Assembly: GCA_004210455.1 (NCBI GenBank)
Contig: SEFA01000042.1
Span: 1-54,415 of the forward strand
From: Rubrivivax sp.
GTDB lineage: Bacteria; Pseudomonadota; Gammaproteobacteria; Burkholderiales; Burkholderiaceae_C
Direction: 5' to 3'
DNA length: 54,415 bases
The notes below the pieces were generated by a model that had not been told where the DNA came from, did no database searches, and saw only the letters and a list, made by a program, of their open reading frames with translations. Shown here piece after piece: positions 7,757 through 33,024 of the stretch. The number at the start of each line of letters is the position of its first letter. The stretch's first letter is position 1. The position numbers were made by a program, and so were the translations under genes.

Positions 7757-8631
7757 CAGGTGTTGCCCTCGTTCCAGCGGAGCTTGCGGCGCAGGGTGGC
7801 GTAGTAGGACCAGCCGCTGGGGTGGAGGAAGGGGGCGCGGTGCTGGGAGCGGCGCACGGTGATGCAGTCGCCGTGGAGGAGGGAGGCGAGGGATTGCATG
7901 TCGAAGTTCACCGAGGCGTCGCGGCCGGCGACGATGGTGAGGCGGACCTCGCCGTTGTCGGGCAGCACGATGGGGCGGTTGGAGAGGGCGTGGGAGGCGA
8001 TGGGCAGGAGGACCCATCCGCCGATGCCGGGGTGGAGGATGGGGCCGCCGGCGGAGAGGGCGTAGGCGGTGGAGCCGGTGGGGGTGCCGACGATGACGCC
8101 GTCGGCGCGCATGTTGGCGACGAACTCGTCGCCGACGTCGACGCGCAGCTCGACCATGGCGGCGGTGGCGCCGCGGGAGACGACGACGTCGTTCAGCGCC
8201 ACGCCGGAGAAGATCTGCTCGCCGTCGCGGATCACGGCGCCTTCGAGGAGGGAGCGGTGCTCGATCTCGAAGTCGCCGGCGAGGATGGGGGCGAGGGCGT
8301 CCTTGAACTGGTCGGCGGAGATATCGGTGATGAAGCCGAGGCGTCCCTGGTTGATGCCGACGAGGGGGAGGTTGTACCGGGCCACCTGGCGGGCGAAGCC
8401 GAGCATGGTGCCGTCGCCGCCGACGACGATGGCGAGGTCGCACTGGGCGCCGAGTTCGGCGTGGGAGAGGCCGGGGAGGGCGGTGATGCCGGTGCTGTCG
8501 GCGGTTTCCTGTTCGAGGGAAACATCCAATCCCTGGGAGGCGACAAAATCGGCAATCTCTTCCAGGATGGGCCGGATGCCCCTGGACTGGGGTTTCCCGA
8601 CGATGGCCACGTGGCGGAAGCGCTTGGACAT
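7756..8631 (-). CDS. nadK: NAD kinase
   Basis: ATP-dependent phosphorylation of NAD to NADP in the cytoplasm. The 291-residue protein carries the invariant [11 protein letters not shown] motif (residues about 72-82), the [14 protein letters not shown] block, NDVVVSRG, and the [16 protein letters not shown] substrate site. First gene of the overlapping nadK-recN-rapZ operon. Its start at 8631 is 72 bases from, and divergent to, hrcA, so the two promoters share a short intergenic region in which I see no CIRCE element. Confidence 0.97.
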
Positions 8632-10238: not shown

Positions 10239-13200
10239 ATGATAAATCAGTTCTTTGAGAAGCCGATTCTCAATTCTCCGTATGAGTATCCCGGACGCCA
10301 TTGGGAACTCGACGCGACAGGGCAGCCAACGCAGCAGATTGTCCAAGCTCGGCGCAGCGCAGAGTTCATCACGCCTATTCCAAAAGCGAAAAAGCAAAGG
10401 GGGGCGAGGCAGGACAGCCTGCTGTTCGACGAACTCTCGACTCAGGCACAAGCCTACAACCACACGGCCATCATCAACGCAGTCCGTTGTGAGGTCGATA
10501 AATGGCGTGCGCTTAAGAATCCAGCCGATTGGCGCGTCACGGCGGAAACAGCCCGCTTACTGCGGCATTGGCGGCATCACGCTTTCAGCGGCACTCGTCC
10601 CTTCTTTTGTCAGGTGGAGGCGGCAGAGACGATCATCTGGCTTACTGAGGTTGCGCCGCAGGTCGGAAAGATTGGTCAAGCCTTTCTCGATCATTTGGAT
10701 AATGCTAAAGACGACGCCAATCCGGAGCTGATGCGCCTCGCGCTAAAGCTGGCTACAGGCGCCGGCAAGACGACGGTAATGGCGATGATCATCGCCTGGC
10801 AGACCGTAAATGCCGTACGCCGCCCAGGTAGCAAGAAGTTCACGAGAGGTTTCTTGCTGGTCGCTCCAGGCCTCACTATCAAGGACCGTCTGCGAGTTTT
10901 GCAGCCTAACGATCCAGACAGCTACTACGCGAGTCGTGAGTTGGTTCCTAGTGACATGCTGGACGATCTGAACCGCGCGAAGATCGTCATTACGAATTAC
11001 CACGCGTTCAAACTTAGAGAGCGCATCGAGTTGTCTAAAGGTGGACGCCTGCTGCTGCAGGGCCGCGGCGGTGAGGAGCTAAACACCCTGGAGACCGAAG
11101 GCCAAATGCTCCAGCGTGTCATGCCCGATCTGATGGGTATGCCCAATATTTTGGTCATTAACGACGAAGCACACCATTGCTATCGCGAGAAGCCAGGCGC
11201 TGAAGCTGAACCATTAAAGGGTGAAGAAAAGAAAGAAGCCGAGGATAACAACGAGGCGGCTCGCATGTGGATTACAGGCTTGGAGGCGGTAAACCGCAAG
11301 CTCGGCGTTGCTAAGGTGATCGATTTGTCTGCCACGCCATTCTTCTTGGCGGGTTCTGGCTATGTTGAAGGCACTCTTTTTCCCTGGACTATGAGCGATT
11401 TTTCGCTAATGGATGCCATCGAATGCGGGATCGTGAAGCTACCGCGCGTGCCCGTTGCTGACAACATTCCTGGCGGGGACATGCCAAAGTTCCGCAACCT
11501 TTGGGAGCACATTCGCACACGCATGCCTAAGAAGGGCCGCGGCGCGGTTAAGGCGCTTGACCCCCTGAGCTTGCCAGTAGAGTTGCAAACTGCTCTGGAG
11601 GCCCTGTATGGCCATTATCAAAAAACCTTTGACCTGTGGCAGTCAGCAGGAATCAAGGTGCCACCTTGTTTCATCGTCGTCTGCAACAACACTTCTACGT
11701 CTAAGCTCGTGTATGACTTCATCTCTGGCTTCAGCCGAGAGAATGAGAATGGCAGTCTCACCCCAGTGCCTGGTCGTCTGGAGTTGTTCCGAAATACTGA
11801 TGAGCACGGAAATCCGTTTGGGCGACCGCGGACTTTGTTGATCGACAGCGAACAGTTGGAGTCTGGCGAGGCGCTGGATGAAAACTTCCGTGTCGCCGCG
11901 GGCCCAGAGATTGAGCAGTTCAAGCAGGAAGTCTTTGAACGCGGGGGCGCACTGGCCGATGAACTTCGATCAGGTAGAGACTTCGATGACGCGCGCTTGT
12001 TGCGCGAGGTTATGAACACGGTTGGCAAGGCTGGGCGGCTGGGCGACTCCATTCGCTGCGTTGTTTCGGTGTCGATGCTAACCGAGGGCTGGGACGCAAA
12101 CACCGTCACTCATGTGCTCGGAGTGCGCGCGTTCGGCACGCAGTTGCTCTGTGAGCAAGTGATCGGTCGTGCTCTTCGGCGCCAATCCTATGACTTGAAC
12201 GAGGAGGGCCTGTTCAATGTTGAATATGCCGACGTACTTGGCATACCTTTTGACTTCACTGCCAAACCCGTTATCTCAAAGCCACAGCCTCCTCGCGAAA
12301 CGGTGCAAGTGCGCGCAATGCACGATCGTGCGGCGCTGGAGATTCAGTTCCCGAGAGTGCAGGGCTATCGTGTTGAGTTGCCTGAAGAACGGTTAACTGC
12401 AGAATTTACTGTTGACTCGCAAATGGTGTTGACGCCCGATTTGGTCGGGCCATCAATCACGCAGAACGCCGGAATCATAGGGGAGACTGTTGACCTCAGC
12501 CTTGAGCACCTGGCTGACATGCGGCATTCCACTCTACTGATGCAGCTCACCAAGCGCCTGCTGATGAATCATTGGCGCGATCCTGGCGATGAGCCCAAAC
12601 TGCATTTGTTTGGCCAGCTCAAGCGCATCACTAAGGAGTGGATCGACACCTGTCTCACTTGCAAAGGTGATACCTATCCCGCGCAATTGATGTATCAGGA
12701 ATTGGCGGATGAGGCCTGCAACCGCATCACTGCAGCTATCACGAAGGCCGAGCAGGCTAATATGCGCCCCATTAAGGCTGTGTTGGATCCCTACAACGCG
12801 ACAGGGTCCACGCGCTTCGTTAACTTCAATACGTCGAAAACCGATCGCTGGGAAACAAGTGGCCCACCTCCGAAATGCCACGTCAATTGGGTGATTCTAG
12901 ATAGCGATTGGGAGGCAGAGTTTTGTCGTGTTGCAGAGCGGCATCGGCGTGTTGTAGCGTACGTCAAGAACCACAACCTAGGACTTGAAGTACCGTATCG
13001 CTACGGTTCAGAGACCCGCAAGTATCGCCCCGACTTTATTGTGCAAGTCGATGACGGCAACGGCCCTGACGACCCTCTCAATCTGATCGTTGAGATCAAA
13101 GGTTACAGGGGTGAGGACGCGAAAGATAAGAAGCTTGCCATGGACACCTACTGGGTGCCTGGCGTAAACAACATAGACGCCTACGGACGGTGGGCGTTCG

Positions 13201-19583: not shown

Positions 19584-20453
19584 TCACGCCGACCTCGTAC
19601 CTTTGCACACCGGATAATTCGAACACCCATAAAACGCCTGTCCCACCTGCGGCCCGCGCTTCGCGATGCGCAGCACCATTGGATGCGAGCAAACCGGGCA
19701 AGCGACCGCCGTGGGGATGTCTGAGGGTTTCGAGGCGGTCGGCGCTGGTGGCAGATGCGGTTCAACCTTGGCGTTCGCCAGCAATTCCTTCAGCCTCGTT
19801 CCATCGATGAGCTCGACGTTTCGACCCTCTGCAAATGCCACGGCCTCAGAGGTGAACCTCCCCGAGGTCACCACAAAGCCACCTGTAGCTCCGCGCGCAG
19901 CCATCACCCCATAGAGCTCCCGCACCACGTTCACGCTCACCTTGAAGGCCTTCCAGTGTTTGCACTGGACGAGGAAGGTTTCGTTCCCGTTGGTTGTTTG
20001 CTTTCGAAGCACGAGATCAACGCCGCCATCGGGCCCGCTGCCGCCGCTCTCGACCACGGTGAATCCCTTGTGCCGGAACGCTTCGCCGATCAGCAGCTCG
20101 AACTGGTGCCAGGTCATGCCGTCGATCGCAGACGCGTCTTGACTCTGCGTCGACGCCTCCAGTAATTTCTTTCTCGCATGCCGTTGCAATGCCGACATGA
20201 CTGCGGACACCAGCAGAATCGCCGGCAGTGCGTACTGCAAAGCGCCGGCTGCGCCGCGCACCAACGCATCCATGGCGAGCGGGCGGTACTGAACTCCCGA
20301 CGACCCCATTTGCGGAATCGCCGGCGGCTGTCCCGCGAGGGCATGCAGCCCGAAGTACACGACCACCGCGAGCGCCACGCAAACCCACCACGGCAGCAAC
20401 GCGAACAGACTCAGCAGACCCCCTCTCGAGGGTCCTCTCTTTCTTCTGGCCAT
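19584..20453 (-). CDS. Mrr-type restriction endonuclease, membrane-anchored
   Basis: 289-residue protein with an Mrr_cat nuclease domain (GMTWHQFELLIGEAFRHKG; D-GGVD-LVLRK; FLVQCKHWK giving D...QxK catalytic residues) and a C-terminal topoisomerase-type zinc ribbon (CPVCSHPM ... FYGCSNYPVCKG). Two hydrophobic segments precede the nuclease (residues about 13-40 and 67-88), implying membrane anchoring. Start at 20453 follows AGGGAGAG; the same Shine-Dalgarno context occurs before the paralogue ending at 23848, which supports this start over the longer frame from 20510. Family members cleave modified or foreign DNA, but membrane-bound versions are poorly understood. Confidence 0.88.
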   Translation of the reverse strand: MARRKRGPSRGGLLSLFALLPWWVCVALAVVVYFGLHALAGQPPAIPQMGSSGVQYRPLAMDALVRGAAGALQYALPAILLVSAVMSALQRHARKKLLEASTQSQDASAIDGMTWHQFELLIGEAFRHKGFTVVESGGSGPDGGVDLVLRKQTTNGNETFLVQCKHWKAFKVSVNVVRELYGVMAARGATGGFVVTSGRFTSEAVAFAEGRNVELIDGTRLKELLANAKVEPHLPPAPTASKPSDIPTAVACPVCSHPMVLRIAKRGPQVGQAFYGCSNYPVCKGTRSA

Positions 20454-20480
20454 ATTGGCTCTCTCCCTGAAAGTGGAAGG

Positions 20481-20510
20481 AGTATCGCCATCACCCGACA
20501 ACCGTGCCAA
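20481..20510 (-). promoter_or_regulatory. Promoter of the first Mrr-type gene
   Basis: On the minus strand TTGGCA (20510-20505) and GATACT (20486-20481) are separated by 18 bases, a good sigma-70 pair, about 28 bases before the start codon. The GATACTCC block and AGGGAGAG leader are conserved upstream of the paralogue (24525-24557). Confidence 0.5.
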
Positions 20511-23847: not shown

Positions 23848-24519
23848 TCAGGCCGGCCTCGTCCCCTTGCACACCGGATACGTCGAACACGCATAGAGCG
23901 GCTGGCCCGCATTCGGTCCCCGCTTGGCCGTGCGCAGCACCATCGGCTGCGAGCACGCCGGGCAGACCACCATCGTGACCTCAGCGGCGGACCGCTGCGG
24001 CTCGGGCTGCGCGGGAGCGGACGCCGCCAGCAGCCCCGTCAGCTTCGGCCCGTCGATGAGCCGCATGTTCCGTCCCTCCGCGAACGCCAGCGCCTCCTTG
24101 GTGAACACGCCCGCGGTCACCACGAATCCACCCGCGGCGCCGCGCGCCGCCATCACGCCGTAAAGCTCCCTCGCCGCGCCCACGCCCACCTTGCGCGCCT
24201 GCCAGTGCTTGCACTGGACGAGGTAGGTCTCGTTCCCGGTCCTGGCCGGCTTGCGCAGCACGAGGTCCACGCCGGCATCGGGCTCGCCGTCGCCGATCCC
24301 GACCACGGTGAACCCCTTCAGCCGGAACGCCTCGCCCATCCGCAGCTGGAACTGGTGCCAGGTCATGCCCTCGAGGGCCGCGGCGTTCCCGCCTCGCCCC
24401 GATGGCTCAGGCGGCCGCCGTCCCGCGCCCGGCCGGAACACCGACATCACCGCCGTGCCGATCGACGCGAACCACCCCGACCGGCCCTCTCCCGAGGATC
24501 CCTTCTTCGTGCTGGCCAT
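23848..24519 (-). CDS. Mrr-type restriction endonuclease, soluble paralogue
   Basis: 223-residue paralogue of the protein at 19584-20453. It keeps the Mrr_cat domain (GMTWHQFQLRMGEAFRLKG; D-AGVDLVLRK; YLVQCKHWQ) and the C-terminal zinc ribbon (CPACSQPM ... YACSTYPVCKG) but lacks the two N-terminal membrane segments, having a short Gly/Ser/Arg-rich N-terminus instead. The ribosome binding site AGGGAGAG and an upstream GATACTCC block are shared with the first copy. It is convergent with the DUF6795-like pair, as the first copy is convergent with the DUF3883 gene. Confidence 0.87.
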   Translation of the reverse strand: MASTKKGSSGEGRSGWFASIGTAVMSVFRPGAGRRPPEPSGRGGNAAALEGMTWHQFQLRMGEAFRLKGFTVVGIGDGEPDAGVDLVLRKPARTGNETYLVQCKHWQARKVGVGAARELYGVMAARGAAGGFVVTAGVFTKEALAFAEGRNMRLIDGPKLTGLLAASAPAQPEPQRSAAEVTMVVCPACSQPMVLRTAKRGPNAGQPLYACSTYPVCKGTRPA

Positions 24520-24814: not shown

Positions 24815-24883
24815 ACGAGGCTACCCGCGATGCTTGAACGCTTGGTGAAGGAAGCGTTGAGGCTCACACGCGGAATGAAAAAA

Positions 24884-24899
24884 GGGCGCCGAAGCGCCC
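24884..24899 (-). terminator. Rho-independent terminator
   Basis: Perfect 6-bp stem GGGCGC / GCGCCC with a tetraloop; on the minus strand it is followed by six T residues (plus-strand A run 24878-24883). It lies 67 bases after the stop of the GG-leader peptide gene at 24966-25172 and so terminates that short transcript. Confidence 0.85.
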
Positions 24900-24965
24900 T
24901 GTGAGTGGTTACCTACGCGGGTTTGAATCACCCCTCTGGTTATTGGATCCCTCAGCAGTCAGATA

Positions 24966-25172
24966 TCAGGTCTCGTCGAGCTTGTCCCTGATCCAATTCA
25001 TACCGCAGCTGATGATGGCGCCATTTTCGCTGACGCCTGGCATACCTGCAACGCGCTGGATGCAATCGATGAAACTCTCGGGCATCGGAACTGGCGCGCG
25101 GCCTTCCGGTGTACCGGCCCAGCTATCGCCGCCGGAAACCATATCGATCTCCTGATCTGTCAAGACTTGCAT
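24966..25172 (-). CDS. Double-glycine-leader peptide precursor 1
   Basis: 68-residue precursor. The first 15 residues, MQVLTDQEIDMVSGG, form a classic double-glycine leader of the type cleaved by C39-peptidase ABC exporters. The predicted 53-residue core starts DSWAGTPEGRAP and contains two cysteines (core positions 22 and 41), which could form a disulfide, and an acidic/basic C-terminus (IRDKLDET). A strong AAGGAGAG ribosome binding site lies 6 bases before the ATG and an intrinsic terminator follows. The core start is shared with the peptide at 29224-29445. Likely a secreted bacteriocin or signalling peptide; the exporter would be the C39 ABC protein at 29489-31648. Divergent from a CPBP membrane protein. 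Confidence 0.85.
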   Translation of the reverse strand: MQVLTDQEIDMVSGGDSWAGTPEGRAPVPMPESFIDCIQRVAGMPGVSENGAIISCGMNWIRDKLDET

Positions 25173-25354
25173 ATCTCTCCTTCGAGGTTCCGAGATTCGC
25201 TCGGCGCGAGTGCATGCGAAACATCCACAGTCGCTACCCTACCTGCGTAATGACAACTTGAATATTCCTCATAAGCACCAGCACAAAGTTGCGTAAATCG
25301 GTGGCCCATTTCCATGCTTAGCATGCTCGGTCAGAATTGCTTCTGCTCAGCGAC

Positions 25355-27010
25355 ATGCCTCGATATTCCCCGCGATTTGTCCATCTGCAGTATTTCTACC
25401 GGAAGCTGCTGCGCATCGTCCGCTGGACTCCGCTCGTGGTCCTCGCCGTGGTTTTCAGAAACTGGCCCGAATTCCTCGAGGGGCCACATCTCTGGACATT
25501 TCTCGACTTCGGACATCGGGGCGAATTCCGTCTCTATCTCAATATTGAGTTGGTGGTGTCCGGGCTTGCGCTGTTGACGGCATTCGTGCGCTGGAATGCG
25601 AGCCCCGCTTGGCGACGGCTATTCAGTCCCGTGCCTTGCGTGAGTTCGGTGTTGATGGTCGCGACGCTTGCGTTATTTGTAGCGGTCATGCTCGCGAAGG
25701 TGCCGGGCGTCATTCATTCGGAATTTCGCCCGATTGATCCGAAGACGCATTTTCAAAGTTGGTCGATCTCGGTCGCTGCGCTCCTGCTGGGCGTGTTCCA
25801 GCAGGAATTGTGGAATCGCGCGATCCTTCAGTCGGCGCTCACGCGCATGTTCGGAAATCGCTGGCTGGGCCTCGCCATCTCGGTGGTCCTGCTGACGATC
25901 GAACAGTCCGGACATCGCTTGGAGACTTTCTGCACCGCCGTCTTCTTGGGCGTCGTATTCATCCGCACGCAATCAGTGGTCTGCACAACGGCGATCCATG
26001 TGGTCCTCGACGTCGCGTTGGGCATCCTGCAGGGCGGCACCTTCATGGAGGCGAGCTTCCTGTCACCGCTCGAAATGCGAAGCGTGAAGCTGCCGACGAT
26101 GGTCGGATTCCTGTTGTTGGCTTTCGCCGTCGAGCTCTGGTATCGACGCTCACCGCGGCTGCTGCAATCGATCAAGGCCGCTGCCAAGGCTGTGTTGCTG
26201 ATGGTCTTCGCCTATGTGCTCTACAGGCTGACCAGCCGGGCGCTCAATCCCCTGTGGCAAGCGCTGCTCGACAGCGGCAACGAGTGGATGACGCGAACAT
26301 TCGTCACCCGCATCGAACTGTTGGTTGACGCTGCGGTACCGGTGATCGCCCTGGCCTGGTTGGGATGGGGACCCACGTTGCGGGAGCTCTTGGCGCTCCG
26401 TCCGAAGGCGACCCTGGGCTTGGCGTTCGTGGCCGCACTCGTCCCATTCCTGGCCGTGTTCATCACTTCGCCGGACGCAGCCAGCGACGGGCTGTTCGCG
26501 CCCTTGAGTCCGTTCACCACCAGCCCCTACTACTGGTTCGGCGCGGTACTTCCGCTGGTCGTGGCCGCGCTGCATGAGGAAGTGATCCACCGTGCGCTCG
26601 TTCAGCCGCTGGTGACTCGACTCTTCCGCAGCGAATGGGCCGGCGTCGTCGGCAGCACGCTGCACTTCGCCGCCTTTCATCCGCCCGAGAGCGTCGCGTT
26701 CGTCATCCCCGGCGGCCTGCTCTTCGCCATCGTGTTCATGCGGACCCGATCCATCGTCTGCACCACGGTTCTGCACGTGACGCTCAACGTCGTCATGACG
26801 ATGCTCTCAGGCAGCAAACTGACCCTCGCGCTCTTCATTCCCGCGGACGACATGGTGGCCGTGCGGCCGATGCTCGGCGCCTTGGTGTTGGCGCTCGCCG
26901 TAGGATTCGAATGGTGTTGGCGGATGTCTGCGGAGGGCCGAGCGCGGCGCTTCCGATCTACCCCGAACGAGAGAATCGCGAGCGCCGTTGGCGCGCCAAC
27001 ATCGCTGTGA
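25355..27010 (+). CDS. Duplicated CPBP (CAAX-protease-like) membrane protein
   Basis: About 551 residues, with many hydrophobic segments across the whole length. It consists of two CPBP/Abi units. The second has all three family motifs: E-E-x3-R (HEEVIHRALVQPL, about residue 408), F-x3-H (HFAAFH) and H-x3-N (LHVTLN). The first is degenerate: QQELWNRAIL lacks the first glutamate, although GHR and IHVVLD remain. CPBP proteins are intramembrane proteases; in bacteriocin loci they give immunity or process peptides. The gene is divergent from GG-leader peptide 1, with 182 bases between starts. A TTG start at 25337 is an alternative; neither start has a good ribosome binding site. It ends 19 bases before the porin gene. 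Confidence 0.83.
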   Translation: MPRYSPRFVHLQYFYRKLLRIVRWTPLVVLAVVFRNWPEFLEGPHLWTFLDFGHRGEFRLYLNIELVVSGLALLTAFVRWNASPAWRRLFSPVPCVSSVLMVATLALFVAVMLAKVPGVIHSEFRPIDPKTHFQSWSISVAALLLGVFQQELWNRAILQSALTRMFGNRWLGLAISVVLLTIEQSGHRLETFCTAVFLGVVFIRTQSVVCTTAIHVVLDVALGILQGGTFMEASFLSPLEMRSVKLPTMVGFLLLAFAVELWYRRSPRLLQSIKAAAKAVLLMVFAYVLYRLTSRALNPLWQALLDSGNEWMTRTFVTRIELLVDAAVPVIALAWLGWGPTLRELLALRPKATLGLAFVAALVPFLAVFITSPDAASDGLFAPLSPFTTSPYYWFGAVLPLVVAALHEEVIHRALVQPLVTRLFRSEWAGVVGSTLHFAAFHPPESVAFVIPGGLLFAIVFMRTRSIVCTTVLHVTLNVVMTMLSGSKLTLALFIPADDMVAVRPMLGALVLALAVGFEWCWRMSAEGRARRFRSTPNERIASAVGAPTSL

Positions 27011-27029
27011 CGCCACCTCGCCCGCACCG

Positions 27030-28145
27030 ATGCAGTCCCGTCCTCTCTCCTCATTCCTGCTCGGCGGTCTCGCGCTCATCGCGACCACCACCGCCCACGC
27101 CCAATCCACCGTCACGGTCTATGGCCGCCTCAACGTCTCGCTTGAGCACGCCGACGCCAGCCACTCCCCGCGCGACCGCGCCGTCAACCGCGAGTCCAAC
27201 AACCGCTCCGTCATCGGCTTCCGCGGCGTCGAGGACCTGGGCGACGGCGTCCAGGCGCTGTTCCAGATCGAGGGCTCGCTCGCCCTCGACACCGGCGTCG
27301 GACCGTCGCTCGCCAACCGCGACACGCGCGTCGGCTTGCAGACCCCGTACGGCCTGGTGTTCGCCGGCCACTGGGGCACGCCTTACCTCCTGGCCACCAA
27401 CACCCTCGACCCCTGGTATCCCACCACCGCCGGCTACATGGCGCTGATGGCCAACGGCTCCGCACCCACCACCAACCACCTCACCAACACCGCATCCTTC
27501 GACCGGCGGCAGCAGAACATCGTCCAGTACTGGACGCCCGCCTGGAGCAGCCAATCCTGGCTCAGCGGCCTCACCGGCCGCATCGCCTACGCCTTCAACG
27601 ACGGTGAGGTGGGCCCGAACGGCGCCAGGCCGCAGCTGCTGTCCGCCTCCGTCACCTGGGACAGCGGCCCCTGGAACCTCGCGCTCGCCCACGAGCAGCA
27701 TCGCGACTACCAAGGCCCGCATCTCACCGACGCCGCGACCAAGCTCGGTGCCGCCTACCGGTTCGGACCGGGACGTCTCGCCACCGCGATCGAACGCCTG
27801 CGCTACGAGACGCCGAACGGCGCCTTGACGCGCGACAGCGTCTTCGTCGCCGCGACCTGGCAGCTCGGCGCGACCAGCCTGCGCGCCAGCTTCACCCACG
27901 CCGGCGAAGGCAAGGGCCCGGCGGGCACGCGCGTCGGGTTCGTCTCGGCCGGCGACGACACCGGCTCGCGCCAGTGGACCCTGGGCGCGGACTACACGCT
28001 GTCCAGGCGCACCGGCTTCTACGCCTATGTCTCGCGCATCGACAACCAGTCCCGCGCCGCCTACGACTTCGCCATCAATCCGCTGGGCGTCGGCGTGGGA
28101 GAGAAACCCACCGTCTTCGCGCTGGGCATGCGGCACGCGTTCTGA
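27030..28145 (+). CDS. Outer-membrane porin (Gram-negative porin family)
   Basis: 371-residue trimeric-type porin of betaproteobacteria. A signal peptide (MQSRPLSSFLLGGLALIATTTAHA) is followed by QSTVTVYGRLNVSLE, the first strand of the family, then GFRGVEDLGDGVQALFQIEG, and the last strand ends in the obligatory C-terminal phenylalanine (FALGMRHAF) recognised by the BAM complex. Strands alternate as expected for a 16-stranded barrel. It starts 19 bases after the CPBP gene but a functional link is unproven. It would admit small hydrophilic solutes to the periplasm, next to a periplasmic amino-acid-binding protein. Confidence 0.92.
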   Translation: MQSRPLSSFLLGGLALIATTTAHAQSTVTVYGRLNVSLEHADASHSPRDRAVNRESNNRSVIGFRGVEDLGDGVQALFQIEGSLALDTGVGPSLANRDTRVGLQTPYGLVFAGHWGTPYLLATNTLDPWYPTTAGYMALMANGSAPTTNHLTNTASFDRRQQNIVQYWTPAWSSQSWLSGLTGRIAYAFNDGEVGPNGARPQLLSASVTWDSGPWNLALAHEQHRDYQGPHLTDAATKLGAAYRFGPGRLATAIERLRYETPNGALTRDSVFVAATWQLGATSLRASFTHAGEGKGPAGTRVGFVSAGDDTGSRQWTLGADYTLSRRTGFYAYVSRIDNQSRAAYDFAINPLGVGVGEKPTVFALGMRHAF

Positions 28146-28301
28146 TCCATCGCCGCGTCGCTGCCGACCGGCGCCCGGTCGGTGCCGGCCGCCACCGACT
28201 GCTGCCGCTGTCCCTCATGTCCTGCGCGGCATATCCATATGCCCGATGACGGGGTCGACTGGTGGCAACATCGGCCCTTCCTACGAACAACGAGGGGCCC
28301 C

Positions 28302-29093
28302 ATGAAAGCACTCCGCACTTCCCTGATCGCAGCCGCGCTGCTCGCCGGCGCTTCCCTCGCGGCCCACGCCGCCGATCTGCTCGACGACGTGAAGTCCCGC
28401 GGCACGCTGCGCGTCGCCGTCGAGGGCACCTACCCGCCGTTCAACTTCAAGGACGCCAAGGGCCAGCTCGACGGCTTCGACGTCGACATCGCCAAGGCCC
28501 TCGCCGCGAAGCTCGGCGTCAAGCCCGAATTCACCACCACCGAGTGGAGCGGCATCCTCGCCGGCCTCCAGGCCGGCAAGTACGACGTCATCGTCAACCA
28601 GGTCGCCGCCACCGACGAGCGCCGCAAGACCTTCGACTTCAGCGCCCCGTACGTCACCTCGTACCCGCAGCTGATCATCCGCGCCAACGAGACCCGCCCG
28701 CTCAACACCGCCGCGGACCTCAAGGGCAAGAAGATCGGCGTCGGCCAGGGCTCCAACTTCGCCGAACTCGCCAAGTCCTGGGACGGCGCCGAAGTGCGCA
28801 CCTATCCCGGCGCCACCGAGTACCTCCAGGACCTCGCCACCGGCCGCATCGACGCCGCCCTCAACGACTCGCTGCTGATCCCCTACCTCAAGGACAAGAC
28901 CAAGCTGCCCGTCAAGGCCGGCGCCGCCATCGGCAAACCCGCCACCAACGCCATCCCGTTCCGCAAGGGCAGCCCCAAGTTCCAGGCCGCGATCGACAAG
29001 GCCCTCGCCGACCTGCAGGCCGACGGCACCTACGCCAAGATCTCCACCAAGTGGTTCGAACGCGACGTCAGCAAGCCGATCGACAACAAGTGA
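28302..29093 (+). CDS. Periplasmic amino-acid-binding protein of an ABC importer
   Basis: 263-residue substrate-binding protein of family 3 (SBP_bac_3). Signal peptide MKALRTSLIAAALLAGASLAAHA, then RGTLRVAVEGTYPPFNF, FDVDIAKALAAKLGV, WSGILAGLQAGKYDVIVNQV and FDFSAPYVTSYPQ. The pattern is nearest to cystine/polar amino-acid binding proteins (FliY/TcyJ type); substrate cannot be fixed from sequence. No permease or ATPase gene is adjacent; a matching permease lies at 49558-50220. A strong terminator follows the gene at 29140-29172, so it is probably monocistronic. Confidence 0.92.
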   Translation: MKALRTSLIAAALLAGASLAAHAADLLDDVKSRGTLRVAVEGTYPPFNFKDAKGQLDGFDVDIAKALAAKLGVKPEFTTTEWSGILAGLQAGKYDVIVNQVAATDERRKTFDFSAPYVTSYPQLIIRANETRPLNTAADLKGKKIGVGQGSNFAELAKSWDGAEVRTYPGATEYLQDLATGRIDAALNDSLLIPYLKDKTKLPVKAGAAIGKPATNAIPFRKGSPKFQAAIDKALADLQADGTYAKISTKWFERDVSKPIDNK

Positions 29094-29139
29094 TCCGCAA
29101 CTGATCCGCCATCGATCGACGAAAGATCAGCGATCGAAC

Positions 29140-29172
29140 GGGCCGGCGCGATGCCCTCGCGCCGGCCCTTTT
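29140..29172 (+). terminator. Strong rho-independent terminator
   Basis: Perfect 12-bp stem (29140-29151 with 29157-29168), 5-base loop TGCCC, followed by TTTTCTC. It terminates the amino-acid-binding protein transcript and insulates it from the convergent peptide gene. Confidence 0.9.
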
Positions 29173-29223
29173 CTCTTGGACGTCTGCAAGCCTCTCGCAG
29201 ACGTCCGGGCCTCAGGGACACGA

Positions 29224-29445
29224 TCAGCGGCTCTTGTTCTGCGTCTTCACCATGGCCATCGCGCCAGCCAGCCCGCCATCGCCTTGCGCTCCGCCGATCG
29301 CTCCCGGCGAACCGATCGCGCCCGTCGTTCCCGTCAGGAGCGCGGGCGTCGCCAGGCAGGGCGCGCGTCCGTCCGACGTGCCAGCCCAGCGGTCGCCGCC
29401 GCTCACCAGCGCGATTTCCTGCGTCGTCAGCTCTTCAAACATCAT
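29224..29445 (-). CDS. Double-glycine-leader peptide precursor 2
   Basis: 73-residue precursor (72 if the second ATG is used, which is better spaced from AAAGG). Leader MMFEELTTQEIALVSGG matches that of peptide 1 at L-T-x-Q-E-I-x-x-V-S-G-G. The 56-residue core starts DRWAGTSDGRAPC and is then rich in Gly, Ala and Thr (TGTTGAIGSPGAIGGAQ, GGLAGAMAM), like pore-forming two-peptide bacteriocins and class II microcins, with a basic tail (KTQNKSR). It lies 43 bases after the stop of the C39 ABC exporter on the same strand, giving the order adaptor, exporter, peptide. Only one cysteine is present, so dimerisation or pairing with peptide 1 is possible but speculative. Confidence 0.82.
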   Translation of the reverse strand: MMFEELTTQEIALVSGGDRWAGTSDGRAPCLATPALLTGTTGAIGSPGAIGGAQGDGGLAGAMAMVKTQNKSR

Positions 29446-29488
29446 CAGCCTTTCAGGTTGAGGTTCAGGTGGTGGGGTGCGATCAACT

Positions 29489-31648
29489 CTAGGTCGCCGA
29501 GTCCTCGCTGACACTCCCCCGCGAGAGGGCGTCGACGGGGGCCATCGAAGGGGGGAGCGGTGCGCCCTCGCGCAGGGCGCCGCGCTCCAGCACCACCACG
29601 CGCTGCGCGCCGGCGATCGTGTCCGGCCGGTGCGCGATCATCAGCCGCGTCAGCGGCAGATCCGCGAGATTCGCCGCGACCGCGCGCTCGCAGGCGATGT
29701 CCAGGTGGCTGGTCGCTTCGTCCAGCGCGAGGATGCGCGGCCCGCGGTACAGCGCCCTCGCCAGCAGCACGCGCTGCTTCTGCCCGCCCGACAGCCCGCT
29801 GCCGAGATCGCCGACCAGCGTCTCATACCCCATCGGCATGCCGGCGATGTCCGCATGGAGCTGCGCCATCGCGGCGCAGAGCCGCACCCGCTCCGGATCC
29901 GGCCGCGCGTCGAAGAACGCGATGTTCTCCGCCAGCGACCCCGTCAGCAGCACGTCGTCCTGCATCACCGTGCCGATGCGGCCGCGCACGTTCTTCAACC
30001 CCAGCTGCCGCAGCGGCACCCCGCCGTAGCGGACCTCGCCCTCGACGGGCTCCAGCAGCCCCAGCATCACCTTCAGCAGCGTCGTCTTGCCCGCGCCGCT
30101 GGGCCCGGTGATCGCCACGCTCTGGCCGGCCGGCACCGCCAGGTTCACGTGGCGGAGGATCCACGGCTCGTGCGGGCCGTAGCGGAAGCTGACGTCGCAC
30201 AGCGCCAGGCTGGCGTCGAGGTGCGCGAGGTCGCTGGCCGGCGCCTCGTCCGGCTCGGGCGGCTCCAGGGCGATGTCGGCCAGGCGCTCGGCATGCAGGC
30301 CCAGCATGCGCCACTCGACGGCGTAGTCGATCAGCGCGGAGACGCGTCCGGTGAACTGCATCTTGTAGCTCAGGAACGCGAACAGCATGCCGACCGTCAT
30401 CGTCACGGCGCCCGCCTGCTGGCCGTCCAGGATCAGCCCCGCGCCGAGGAACAGCACCAGCAGGTTCTCCACCCCGAACAGGAAGGTGTTGGCGGCGCCC
30501 GTCGCCATCGCCAGCCTGGCCGTGCGGACGTCCCGGTTCTGCACCTCGACGATCAGGTTCTGCCACTGCGCGCGGCGCTCGTGCTCGCGGCCGAACAGCT
30601 TCAGCGGCGTCATCGCGCGCAAGGTCTCGAGGAAGTGCGAGTGCTCCCGCGCCGCGACGACCAGGCGTTCGGCGGAGGCCTCCTTCAGCGGCCGGTAGGC
30701 GACCCAGCGCAGCAGCCCGTACAACGCGACCGCGCCCAGCACCACCAGCGCCAGCGGCCAGGCGTAGACCAGCATCATGACCAGGGCCGCCGCGGCCATC
30801 AGTCCGTCGAGGACGGCCTCGATCGCGGCGCCGGTCAGCGTCTTCTGGATCGCTTCGACCGCGCCGAAGCGCGAGGTGATGTCGCCCAGATGGCGGCGCT
30901 CGAAAAAGGCGACGGGCAGCCGGAGCAGATGGGCGAAGGCGTTGGCACGCCATTGCAGCGACAACGTCTGCGTGAGCAGGATCAGCAGCCAGGAGCGCGC
31001 GACGCCCAGCGCCGTCTGCGTCGCCAGCAGCAGGCCGAATCCGGCGACGAGTACCTTCAGCAGGTCGCGGTCGCCGGAAGTGAGCACGTCGTCGACGATG
31101 AGCTGGTTGCACAGCGGCGCGACGATCGCGAAGAGCTCCAGCACCCCCGCGACCAGCACGATCTGCAGCAGCGAGCGGCGCAGGCCGAGCACCTTGCCGG
31201 TGAGCGCGGAGAGCGACACGCGCGGCGCGGCGGCGGCCGGCTGGAACGCCGCATTCGGCGTCAGTTCGAGCGCGACGCCGGTGAAGTGGGCGGAGACCTC
31301 GGCGAGCGTGAGTCGCCGCTCGCCGACCGCCGGATCGAGCACGGTGATGGCGCGTCCGCGGACCTTCGTCAGCACGACAAAATGGCGCAGGTCCCAGTGC
31401 AGGATGCAGGGCAGCGACAGCTTGCCGAGCAGCGCGAGGTCCAGCTTCAACGGCCGGCCGGAGAAACCCAGGCCGGCGGCGACCTCGATGAGGTCGCGCA
31501 GCTGCATGCCCTTCAGCGCGGCGGGGAAGCGCCGGCGCAGCTCGGGCAGCGTCACCGCATTGCCGTGCGCCGAGGCGATCATGGCCAGGCAGGCCAGTCC
31601 GCACTCGGCGATCTCGGACTGGAGGAGGGGCGCGGGACGGACCGTCAC
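29489..31648 (-). CDS. C39-peptidase ABC exporter (bacteriocin-type)
   Basis: 719-residue protein that removes double-glycine leaders and exports the peptide across the inner membrane. The N-terminal C39 peptidase (residues 1-130) has the oxyanion Gln10, catalytic Cys16 in SEIAECGLACLAM, His in DLRHFVVLTKV and Asp in ITVLDPAVGERR. Residues about 160-440 form the six-helix ABC membrane domain. The nucleotide-binding domain has Walker A GPSGAGKTTLL, signature LSGGQKQRVLLARAL, Walker B ILALDEATSHLD and H-loop MIAHRPDTI. It starts at GTG 31648, overlapping the adaptor stop (GTGA). It is upstream of GG-leader peptide 2 and is the natural processor of both peptides. Confidence 0.94.
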   Translation of the reverse strand: MTVRPAPLLQSEIAECGLACLAMIASAHGNAVTLPELRRRFPAALKGMQLRDLIEVAAGLGFSGRPLKLDLALLGKLSLPCILHWDLRHFVVLTKVRGRAITVLDPAVGERRLTLAEVSAHFTGVALELTPNAAFQPAAAAPRVSLSALTGKVLGLRRSLLQIVLVAGVLELFAIVAPLCNQLIVDDVLTSGDRDLLKVLVAGFGLLLATQTALGVARSWLLILLTQTLSLQWRANAFAHLLRLPVAFFERRHLGDITSRFGAVEAIQKTLTGAAIEAVLDGLMAAAALVMMLVYAWPLALVVLGAVALYGLLRWVAYRPLKEASAERLVVAAREHSHFLETLRAMTPLKLFGREHERRAQWQNLIVEVQNRDVRTARLAMATGAANTFLFGVENLLVLFLGAGLILDGQQAGAVTMTVGMLFAFLSYKMQFTGRVSALIDYAVEWRMLGLHAERLADIALEPPEPDEAPASDLAHLDASLALCDVSFRYGPHEPWILRHVNLAVPAGQSVAITGPSGAGKTTLLKVMLGLLEPVEGEVRYGGVPLRQLGLKNVRGRIGTVMQDDVLLTGSLAENIAFFDARPDPERVRLCAAMAQLHADIAGMPMGYETLVGDLGSGLSGGQKQRVLLARALYRGPRILALDEATSHLDIACERAVAANLADLPLTRLMIAHRPDTIAGAQRVVVLERGALREGAPLPPSMAPVDALSRGSVSEDSAT

Positions 31649-33024
31649 GGCCGCACCCGTCGGGCGGTCGCGAGCAAGGGCTCCAGCACCCATTCCCAGA
31701 CGCGCCGGTGTTCGAGCGTCACGTCGGCATCGAGCGCCATGCCCGCGCGCAGCGGCAGGTCCCGGCCGTAGGCGGCGATGTCCTCGCGATCCAGGCGCAC
31801 ATCGATGCGGTAGAGCGGCTCGTTCGCCTGCGCCGCGCTGACCAGCGCCTGCGCCTGCCCGGCGGGGAGGTCCTGCGGCGCGATGGGCGTGGTGCTCACG
31901 CGCGCGACCTCGCCTCTGGCCATGCCGAACTTCTGGTACGGGTAGGCGGCGTAGCGCAGCCACACCGGCTGGCCGGGCTGGACGAACCCCACCGTCCGGC
32001 TCGGCGCATAGAGCTGCGCGAGCAGGCGCGGCGGCGGGTGAGGGCGAATCGGCATCGGCGACATCGATGACATCGATGACATCGGTGACATCGGCGACAT
32101 CGGCGACATCGGCGACATCGGCGTGCTCGAAGCTTCCGGCGCTGGGGTCGGCGTCGGCACGAGCGTCACCAGCGTCTGCCCGGCCTGGACCGCCTGACCG
32201 GCGCGCAGGGGCAGGGCGCTGACGCGTCCGTCGCGGGGCGCGGTGAGGGCAACGCTCGCGCGAGCCTGCAGTTCGGCGCGTTCCTGCTCCAGCTGCGCCA
32301 CGACGCGGTCGAGCTGCGTCATCGCCGTCGCCAGGCTTGTCGGAATCGAGGCGAGCTCCGCGGTCAGCGTCCGCGTCTCGCGCGTGAGCGACTCGATCGC
32401 CCGCTGCGCGCCGTGCTCGCGCGCACGCAGGTCGAGCAGGTCCTCGTCCTTCTGCTGGATCTGGACCTCGGACAGGTAGCCGCTCGCCGCCAGTGCCGCG
32501 TAACGCTTGCGGCTGCGCTGCGCGAGGTCGACACGCTGGCGGATCAGGTCCAGTTCCCCGGCGGCCTGATCCGTCTCGACGCGCAGGCTGCGCAGGCGTC
32601 CGACGAGGGTCTCGCGACGCTCGTCCGCCTGGCGCTGCTGCAGCCGGCGCTCCGTGGCCAGACTGTCGCGCCTGACCTCGACCGCGCGCAGGGTGAGCGC
32701 CGTCATGTCGCCGCCGTCGACCAGGCGCTCGCTGCGCACGCGCGCCAGGGGCTGTCCGCGGCGCACCGCGTCGCCTTCCTCGACGAGCAGCTCCTCGACC
32801 TGTCCCGCCAGGGGCGCGGCCACCTGCAGCAGGCCGCCGACCGGCATGAGCAGGCCCGGCACGCGGGCCTTGCGCGAGACCTGCCCAATCAGCGCGAAGG
32901 CGATCAGCGCGATCGCCAGCGCCACCGCGATCGCCGCGACGATGCCGGCCTCCGGCCGTTGCGCGACGCGGATGCTGCCCATCCATGTGGCCTGCTGAGA
33001 CTCCTTGACCGCTGCCCGAAACAT
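31645..33024 (-). CDS. HlyD-family membrane fusion adaptor
   Basis: 459-residue periplasmic adaptor linking the C39 ABC exporter to an outer-membrane channel (TolC-like, not in this window). One N-terminal membrane helix (AAIAVALAIALIAFALIGQV, residues about 29-48), a biotinyl-lipoyl half motif (VAAPLAGQVEELLVEEGDAV), a long coiled-coil hairpin (about 110-250) and the second lipoyl half (LTAPRDGRVSALPLRAGQAV). An unusual Met-Ser-Pro repeat (residues about 300-324) interrupts the beta-barrel domain entry, encoded by 9-bp DNA repeats. No good ribosome binding site before either candidate start (33024 or 32982). First gene of the exporter operon. Confidence 0.92.
   Translation of the reverse strand: MFRAAVKESQQATWMGSIRVAQRPEAGIVAAIAVALAIALIAFALIGQVSRKARVPGLLMPVGGLLQVAAPLAGQVEELLVEEGDAVRRGQPLARVRSERLVDGGDMTALTLRAVEVRRDSLATERRLQQRQADERRETLVGRLRSLRVETDQAAGELDLIRQRVDLAQRSRKRYAALAASGYLSEVQIQQKDEDLLDLRAREHGAQRAIESLTRETRTLTAELASIPTSLATAMTQLDRVVAQLEQERAELQARASVALTAPRDGRVSALPLRAGQAVQAGQTLVTLVPTPTPAPEASSTPMSPMSPMSPMSPMSSMSSMSPMPIRPHPPPRLLAQLYAPSRTVGFVQPGQPVWLRYAAYPYQKFGMARGEVARVSTTPIAPQDLPAGQAQALVSAAQANEPLYRIDVRLDREDIAAYGRDLPLRAGMALDADVTLEHRRVWEWVLEPLLATARRVRP
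32053..32123 (-). repeat. 9-bp tandem repeats in the HlyD gene
   Basis: About eight near-identical copies of a 9-bp unit (plus strand GACATCGGC with C/T and G/A variants). In frame they encode Met-Ser-Pro or Met-Ser-Ser tripeptides. Copy-number change would lengthen or shorten the protein by three residues without a frameshift. Confidence 0.85.

What the first reader, a model, noticed from the sequence alone, without database searches (positions are those of the whole stretch)
24966..33024. Candidate Gram-negative double-glycine peptide system
Two precursor peptides with double-glycine leaders, a C39-peptidase ABC exporter, an HlyD-type adaptor and a CPBP membrane protein lie within 8 kb. The minus-strand order adaptor, exporter, peptide 2 has overlapping or close genes; peptide 1 has its own strong ribosome binding site and terminator. 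Class II microcin and bacteriocin systems use exactly these parts. I do not recognise either core peptide as a known bacteriocin.
Basis: partly seen in the sequence, partly recalled or inferred. Interest (0 to 1): 0.87.

Follow-up and report, generated by a model that had tools for sequence, protein, structure and literature searches.

The report
Roseateles secreted peptides sharing a tag
An environmental bacterium carries a secretion locus for small, probably antibacterial peptides, and these peptides share a 12-residue "tag" joined to otherwise unrelated peptide bodies, which so far has been found only in this one genus.

Summary
Two real double-glycine (GG) precursor genes (24966-25172 and 29224-29445, minus), a C39-peptidase ABC exporter, an HlyD adaptor and a divergent two-domain CPBP protein lie together in a Roseateles chromosome. 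R. noduli has the same locus. The best reading is a class II microcin/bacteriocin-type secretion locus. The peptides reach no Pfam or NCBIfam cut-off, and antibacterial activity is untested.

(1) Both peptides carry a conserved box, D[SR]WAGT[PS][ED]GRAP, directly after GG. I found it in 8 peptides from 5 of 16 Roseateles genomes, on three unrelated core types, and in no other genus in two samples and an exact GTDB-wide pattern scan. In pep1 the box has 7 synonymous and 0 amino-acid changes between species, while the core diverges. (2) At the same site, four sister species keep the exporter but carry different GG peptides. (3) Another box peptide overlaps a small membrane protein gene in the way immunity genes do; one relative without the peptide keeps a fragment of it. 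pep1 is paired with CPBP in both species that carry the locus. The role of the box is unknown: an uptake, target or folding module is most likely, an exporter tag less likely.

The parts
24966..25172 (-). pep1: GG precursor, leader MQVLTDQEIDMVSGG, mature DSWAGTPEGRAPVPMPESFIDCIQRVAGMPGVSENGAIISCGMNWIRDKLDET (53 aa, 5.7 kDa, C-x18-CG)
   Evidence: homologue 68% identical in R. noduli at the same site
25092..25127 (-). post-GG box of pep1, DSWAGTPEGRAP
   Evidence: 7 synonymous, 0 non-synonymous differences against R. noduli
24883..24900 (-). hairpin + T run downstream of pep1 (terminator-like)
   Evidence: identical in R. noduli
25355..27010 (+). divergent two-domain CPBP (Rce1-like) membrane protein, candidate pep1 immunity protein; C-terminal half keeps EExxHR, H and HxxxN, N-terminal half has QQELWNR (listed as ORF 25337-27010 from an upstream TTG)
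   Evidence: start inferred
29224..29445 (-). pep2: GG precursor, leader MMFEELTTQEIALVSGG, mature DRWAGTSDGRAPCLATPALL... (56 aa, 5.3 kDa, one Cys)
29359..29394 (-). post-GG box of pep2, DRWAGTSDGRAP
29489..31648 (-). C39-peptidase ABC exporter; C39 signatures ECGLAC, HFVVL and LDPA present, plus GPSGAGKT and LSGGQ
31645..33024 (-). HlyD-family periplasmic adaptor, stop codon overlaps exporter GTG
27030..28145 (+). porin (syntenic neighbour, not thought to be part of the system)
   Evidence: start inferred
28302..29093 (+). amino-acid ABC substrate-binding protein (syntenic neighbour, not thought to be part)
   Evidence: start inferred

Best explanation
This is a chromosomal type I secretion locus of class II microcin/bacteriocin type in Roseateles. 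The C39 domain of the exporter cleaves pep1 and pep2 after GG; exporter, HlyD adaptor and a TolC-type protein encoded elsewhere carry the mature 53- and 56-residue peptides out. They act as weapons against related bacteria, and the divergent CPBP protein protects the producer from pep1. Mature peptides are modular: a conserved N-terminal box (D[SR]WAGTPEGRA) that does a job common to all of them, most likely uptake, target contact or folding in the recipient or periplasm, followed by an exchangeable core (disulfide helical hairpin, Gly-rich chain or GxxxG-rich hydrophobic segment) that sets the specific effect. Shown here: genes, motifs, conservation, synteny, cargo replacement, selection on the box. 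Inferred: secretion, cleavage, disulfide, killing, immunity, role of the box.
For: The exporter has C39, TM and ATPase domains and the C39 signatures. Its full-length solved relatives are an 'ABC-type bacteriocin transporter' (4ry2, 8vp3), HlyB and ComA. The adaptor is adjacent. TolC-type proteins are encoded elsewhere in the genome, 2 of 20 matches above the curated cut-off. The whole locus is kept in R. noduli, with slow neighbours (SBP 99%, porin 94%, exporter 90%) but fast pep1 (68%), pep2 (only the first 36 residues align) and CPBP (74%), the pattern expected of toxin and immunity genes. In 4 sister genomes the same site keeps the exporter (75-83%) but has other GG peptides, ELTQ[ED]EIDQVHGG, and neither pep1 nor pep2. 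pep1 has CPBP beside it in both genomes with the locus; CPBP orthologues occur in 4 of 16 genomes, each near this exporter. A third box peptide (G000:C97; also G007, and truncated in G003) has a GxxxG-rich core and a downstream small membrane protein gene, overlapping it in G000 and G007 (149 aa, 4 predicted TM in G000); 3 of 3 peptide loci have it, and G013 keeps a fragment without the peptide. pep1-type cores keep C-x18-CG in 3 of 3, and pep1 is modelled as two helices (low confidence).
Against: No activity, secretion or immunity data. pep1 is acidic (pI 4.3) and not hydrophobic (GRAVY -0.25), unlike many membrane-active bacteriocins. Its Shine-Dalgarno sequence is not kept in R. noduli. No immunity candidate lies beside pep2. 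G002 has a pep1-type peptide but no CPBP match; its neighbour is a 391-aa protein without predicted TM segments or a Pfam match, so the CPBP-pep1 pairing is not universal. CPBP persists without pep1 in G011 and, with an internal stop, in G003. The pep2 core is nearly unconserved between the two species and may be decaying; in pep2 the leader is better kept than the box (0 against 5 non-synonymous differences).
Confidence: 0.65

Rival explanations
1. The peptides are secreted signals (pheromones) rather than weapons; the box is the part read by a common receptor.
For: GG peptides exported by C39 transporters include pheromones (general knowledge); pep2's leader gives a sub-threshold ComC/BlpC hit (E 0.05-0.09), which is a leader-type match only. 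The box is short, hydrophilic and near-invariant, as a recognised epitope would be. Genes that look like a response regulator and a sensor kinase (by sequence, no family search) lie upstream of the C97 box peptide, separated from it by one OmpA-like gene.
Against: 53-64-residue cores of different types are unusual for a signal; a small membrane protein gene overlaps the C97-type peptide; I saw no regulator beside pep1 or pep2 among the genes searched. Cargo and CPBP evolve much faster than neighbours.
Confidence: 0.17
2. The box is part of an extended export or cleavage signal for the C39 exporter, not a module of the active peptide.
For: It directly follows the cleavage site and is conserved together with the leader; in pep2 the leader is even better kept than the box.
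Against: Peptides with a similar leader but no box occur in the same genome (L122, L124, L125, L126). Box peptides occur in G002 and G007, whose nearest relatives of the window exporter are only 59% and 53% identical. In the pep1 and C97 types the box is better conserved than the leader.
Confidence: 0.13
3. The CPBP protein is a second maturation protease or is unrelated to the peptides, and pep2 is a decaying remnant.
For: The C-terminal half of CPBP keeps the catalytic residues; CAAX-type proteins in bacteriocin clusters have been linked to immunity, processing or reception, and one (SilX) was tested and found not to give immunity (PMC9298176, passages seen). The pep2 core is unconserved.
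Against: CPBP matches in the genus lie only near this locus and it evolves faster than its neighbours. The pep2 leader and box stay in frame with 0 leader amino-acid changes, and the two gaps in the core are both 9 bases, which is not how a dead gene usually drifts.
Confidence: 0.2

Closest known systems
Class II microcin systems (MccV, MccH47 and others)
   Same: GG leader of 15-18 aa, C39 ABC exporter + membrane fusion protein, small 5-10 kDa unmodified or disulfide peptides, hypervariable cores, separate membrane immunity proteins (definitions from passages of PMC9746304 and PMC10233263)
   Different: Burkholderiales host; mature peptides of 53 and 56 residues, below the 60-90 of known cores; a near-invariant N-terminal box on unrelated cores, whereas most known class II cores show very low pairwise identity; a 550-residue CPBP protein where known immunity proteins are 51-216 aa
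Pediocin-like class IIa bacteriocins
   Same: Works alike in layout: conserved hydrophilic N-terminal box in the mature peptide followed by a variable C-terminal part (passages of PMC2634753)
   Different: No YGNGV/pediocin box, Gram-negative host, no cysteine in the box; not a member
CPBP/CAAX-type proteins of bacteriocin clusters in Gram-positive bacteria
   Same: Rce1-like membrane protein with an EExxxR motif beside a GG peptide (passages of PMC9298176)
   Different: Tandem two-domain protein with a degenerate first half; function untested

Membership tests
Class II microcin system | GG (or GA) leader of about 15-18 residues on the precursor | tested here: met
   15 and 17 residues
Class II microcin system | C39-peptidase ABC exporter with Cys/His/Asp residues | tested here: met
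   Pfam C39 over cut-off; signatures ECGLAC, HFVVL, LDPA in order; triad read from signatures, not from a structure
Class II microcin system | membrane fusion protein next to the exporter | tested here: met
   HlyD 31645-33024
Class II microcin system | TolC-type outer membrane protein in the genome | tested here: met
   20 matches, 2 above the cut-off, none on the window's contig
Class II microcin system | mature peptide 5-10 kDa | tested here: met
   5.7 and 5.3 kDa; residue number (53, 56) is below the 60-90 of known cores
Class II microcin system | cognate immunity protein | tested here: inconclusive
   CPBP beside pep1 in 2 of 2 genomes with the locus; no candidate beside pep2; none obvious in G002
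Class II microcin system | antibacterial activity of the secreted peptide | not testable with these tools
   needs expression and killing assay
Pediocin-like class IIa bacteriocin | YGNGV pediocin box with two cysteines | tested here: not met
   sequence of both peptides
CPBP-type immunity protein | EExxxR plus conserved His in an Rce1-like domain | tested here: met
   C-terminal domain of the window, G006 and G011 proteins (3 of 3 full-length open frames aligned); N-terminal domain degenerate; a second, shorter G011 copy lacks them; the G003 copy was not aligned
CPBP-type immunity protein | confers resistance to the neighbouring peptide | not testable with these tools
   needs deletion and protection assay

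The most novel reading that the evidence does not exclude
Roseateles has a combinatorial peptide arsenal in which one near-invariant 12-residue N-terminal element, retained after leader cleavage, is placed on unrelated toxic cores encoded at several loci. The element would be a common entry or target-docking tag (a Gram-negative counterpart in layout of the pediocin box), so that one receptor in close relatives admits many different toxins.
Probability: 0.28. Interest if true: 0.78.

Novelty: new variant of a known kind. Interest (0 to 1): 0.54.

Why it matters
Only about ten class II microcins had been verified by 2022, from E. coli and Klebsiella (PMC9746304, passages); later reports add Acinetobacter (passages), Serratia (listing) and screened candidates from Pantoea, Erwinia and Xanthomonas (passages). 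If these peptides are active they would extend the class to Burkholderiales. They would also supply a natural experiment in modularity: the same short N-terminal element on unrelated cores, with candidate immunity genes for two of the three core types. That makes an open question directly testable by deleting short segments in a laboratory host: which part of a microcin decides uptake, which decides target, and which the immunity protein recognises.

Tried and rejected
Pfam and NCBIfam gave nothing for the peptides except sub-threshold ComC/BlpC leader hits for pep2. A plasmid-collection protein search with pep1 gave one weak hit inside an Aeromonas integrase gene; pep2 was not searched there. 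The exporter has thousands of plasmid-borne relatives, all below 60% identity among the 5000 records kept (best row 53%, Paraburkholderia), so the exporter type itself is ordinary. Rfam and tRNA scans showed only a tRNA-Met far from the locus. The L011 match of the loose DNA pattern in G007 is a chance hit (no leader). I looked for a GG peptide upstream of the CPBP gene in G003 and G011 and found none. I first read G011 as having the peptide deleted between an intact promoter and terminator; the three-way alignment supports homology of the upstream stretch only, so I claim just that the peptide is absent. The best outside-genus hit of the box profile (G690, E 6e-4) is a WAGTPEGR string in a frame with a stop and no leader, a chance match. 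A PDB sequence search with CPBP found nothing at E 0.1. The AlphaFold model of pep1 (mean pLDDT 67, pTM 0.43) is too weak for a fold search, so none was run. I considered a two-peptide class IIb bacteriocin (pep1 + pep2) and did not adopt it: the genes are 4 kb apart, the pep2 core lacks conservation, and the pep1 core after the box has no GxxxG (the box itself contains GTPEG). I considered an exporter-specific role for the box and did not take it as the main reading because box peptides occur where the window-type exporter does not. Co-occurrence of the box with the C148-type exporter (5 of 5 box genomes, against 10 of 16 genomes overall, my grouping by identity rows) is suggestive only. Papers: listings for all search hits; passages for PMC9746304, PMC9298176, PMC10233263, PMC13174018, PMC2634753 and PMC10333792; no paper was read whole. 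Not-in-print statements rest on (Roseateles + bacteriocin: 5 papers, none on this by title and abstract start; string WAGTPEGRA: 0 papers; Mitsuaria + bacteriocin: 10 papers, 8 listed, none on this by title and abstract start; Roseateles: 0 occurrences in PMC13174018); subscription papers are mostly not in that library.

Full report
Setting. The window is contig C173 of a 6.3 Mb genome. A pattern scan of the GTDB species set (84,980 genomes) returned only Roseateles noduli and Roseateles aquatilis records.

Observation. pep1 (24966-25172, minus) and pep2 (29224-29445, minus) are real genes. Their leaders are 15 and 17 residues and end in GG; the mature peptides are 53 residues (5.7 kDa, pI 4.3) and 56 residues (5.3 kDa, pI 9.3). 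Leader and post-GG expressions match twice in the window and never in 200 shuffles. The exporter (29489-31648) has C39, membrane and ATPase domains with the signatures ECGLAC, HFVVL and LDPA. Its solved relatives that align over nearly the full length include a bacteriocin transporter (4ry2), HlyB and ComA. The HlyD adaptor (31645-33024) overlaps it by four bases. The CPBP protein (25355 or 25337 to 27010, plus) has two Rce1-like stretches. Its C-terminal half keeps EExxHR, a downstream His and HxxxN in the window, G006 and G011 proteins; its N-terminal half has QQExWxR. TolC-type proteins lie elsewhere in the genome. The exporter type is widespread, so the machinery is ordinary.

The shared box. 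Directly after GG, pep1 reads DSWAGTPEGRAP and pep2 DRWAGTSDGRAP. Searching 16 same-genus genomes (the window's own included) with the leader + box profile gave 8 matches over the leader and box in 5 genomes: three in the window's genome (pep1, pep2 and one on contig C97), two in G006, and one each in G002, G007 and G003 (the last with a truncated core). The other matches of that search at E up to 1 cover only part of the profile; those I translated are other GG leaders or chance. In a family sample a DNA pattern for the box, one mismatch allowed, matched 2 of 399 genomes, both in this genus (1 of 141 genera). In an order sample of 399 genomes, 33 genomes besides the window's had a match at E 0.1, none across all 25 positions (longest 1-21); of the 19 outside loci returned, 18 could be read and none joins a leader to the box, 7 of them being other GG peptides. 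That search scores at most 21 first-look candidates a genome (150 in the genus search), so it is not exhaustive. In the GTDB species scan an exact pattern gave 2 stretches, both Roseateles. That pattern would miss diverged boxes, and by its letters it would not match the G003 copy.

Selection. Between the window and R. noduli the pep1 box has 7 synonymous and 0 non-synonymous differences, while the core has dN 0.42 and dS 0.73. The pep2 leader has 0 non-synonymous differences, its box 5 and its core dN 0.64. Between pep1 and the C97 peptide the box has dN 0.12 against 1.26 for the core. The counts are small, so these are indications. The conservation is at the protein level: the codons differ.

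Core types. pep1 and its relatives in G006 and G002 keep two cysteines exactly 18 residues apart followed by Gly (3 of 3). The AlphaFold model puts them in two helices, with the residues around the cleavage site and early box below pLDDT 50 (low confidence). The C97 type (G000, G007, and truncated in G003) is GxxxG-rich. The pep2 type has a single Cys and is Gly/Ala-rich. The same genome also encodes GG peptides of similar leader without the box.

The locus across species. In R. noduli (G006) the order EF-hand, HlyD, exporter, pep2, SBP, porin, CPBP, pep1 is the same. Identities are SBP 99%, EF-hand 96%, porin 94%, exporter 90%, HlyD 81%, CPBP 74%, pep1 68%; for pep2 only the first 36 residues align. 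In G003, G013, G011 and G004 the exporter (75-83%), HlyD, SBP and porin are kept, but tblastn finds neither pep1 nor pep2 in the 20 kb taken. Instead there are short peptides with the leader ELTQ[ED]EIDQVHGG, and in G003, G013 and G004 a 240-260 aa, possibly secreted protein beside them; the G003 one and both G004 ones have no Pfam match (the G013 one was not searched). G004 has two such pairs. CPBP orthologues occur in 4 of 16 genomes (G000, G006, G011, and G003 with an internal stop; G011 also has a second, weaker copy), near this exporter in each.

Immunity candidates. The C97 peptide gene overlaps, in G000 and G007, a small membrane protein gene (149-150 aa; 4 predicted TM segments by hydropathy in both, 3 in the G003 copy). 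This gene follows the peptide in 3 of 3 genomes that have the peptide (69-70% and 40-41% identity), and only a fragment remains in G013 between the same OmpA-like and PurB-like genes, where the peptide is absent. A peptide with an overlapping small membrane protein gene is a common bacteriocin and immunity arrangement (general knowledge), and it supports reading CPBP as the pep1 partner. Against that, G002 has a pep1-type peptide and no CPBP match.

Mechanism. The leader directs the precursor to a C39 exporter, which cleaves after GG and passes the peptide to HlyD and TolC. The mature peptide begins with the box. Because the box is not tied to one exporter or one leader, I favour a role after export. 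In known class II microcins the N-terminal part carries activity and the C-terminal part uptake (PMC10233263 and PMC13174018, passages), so a conserved N-terminal box with variable C-terminal parts is compatible with a common target or folding element and exchangeable specificity. The layout also resembles pediocin-like peptides (PMC2634753, passages), without being related to them. None of the functional steps has been shown.

Verdict. This is a real, well-preserved double-glycine peptide secretion locus of class II microcin type. What is new is a genus-restricted box shared by unrelated cores, not the general machinery. I rate it a new variant of a known kind.

Noticed in passing
L027 (G000:C105) 10472-11242, minus: Array of five tiny GG precursors with 9-12-residue cores PQV(I/T/L)NDxxx beside another C39 exporter and HlyD; single relatives with PQ(V/I)xND cores in G001 (L078) and G010 (L083).
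   Followed up: partly
L026 (G000:C148) 8199-8429, plus: GG-type peptide with a repeated APKGTW motif between a LuxR-like gene (by eye) and an HlyD + C39 exporter pair.
   Followed up: no
L127 2050-2334; L091; L108: A second post-GG box, DAA[AI]TRxxGxN[SP]WGE, on GG peptides of G002, G007 and a genome of another family in the order (G681), again followed by different cores.
   Followed up: no
L089 (G003:C15) and L090 (G011:C60): GG peptides with a GGDHWG[YF]EA start and a long Ser/Thr/Tyr-rich core.
   Followed up: no
L058 13413-14159; L061 11324-12940; L060 11672-12415: Proteins of about 240-260 aa with an LPR[ST]E[IV]SG motif near the N-terminus, each beside a short GG peptide (ELTQ[ED]EIDQVHGG); no Pfam match for the three searched; partner or immunity role possible.
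   Followed up: partly
window 32053-32123: Nine-base tandem repeat (7.9 copies) inside the HlyD gene, where the protein has an MSPMSPMSPM-type low-complexity stretch.
   Followed up: no
window 23848-24519 and 19584-20510; L024 11440-12354: Mrr-type restriction endonuclease with zinc ribbon near pep1 and proteins that look alike elsewhere in the window and near the R. aquatilis box peptide; probably a dispersed paralogue family.
   Followed up: no
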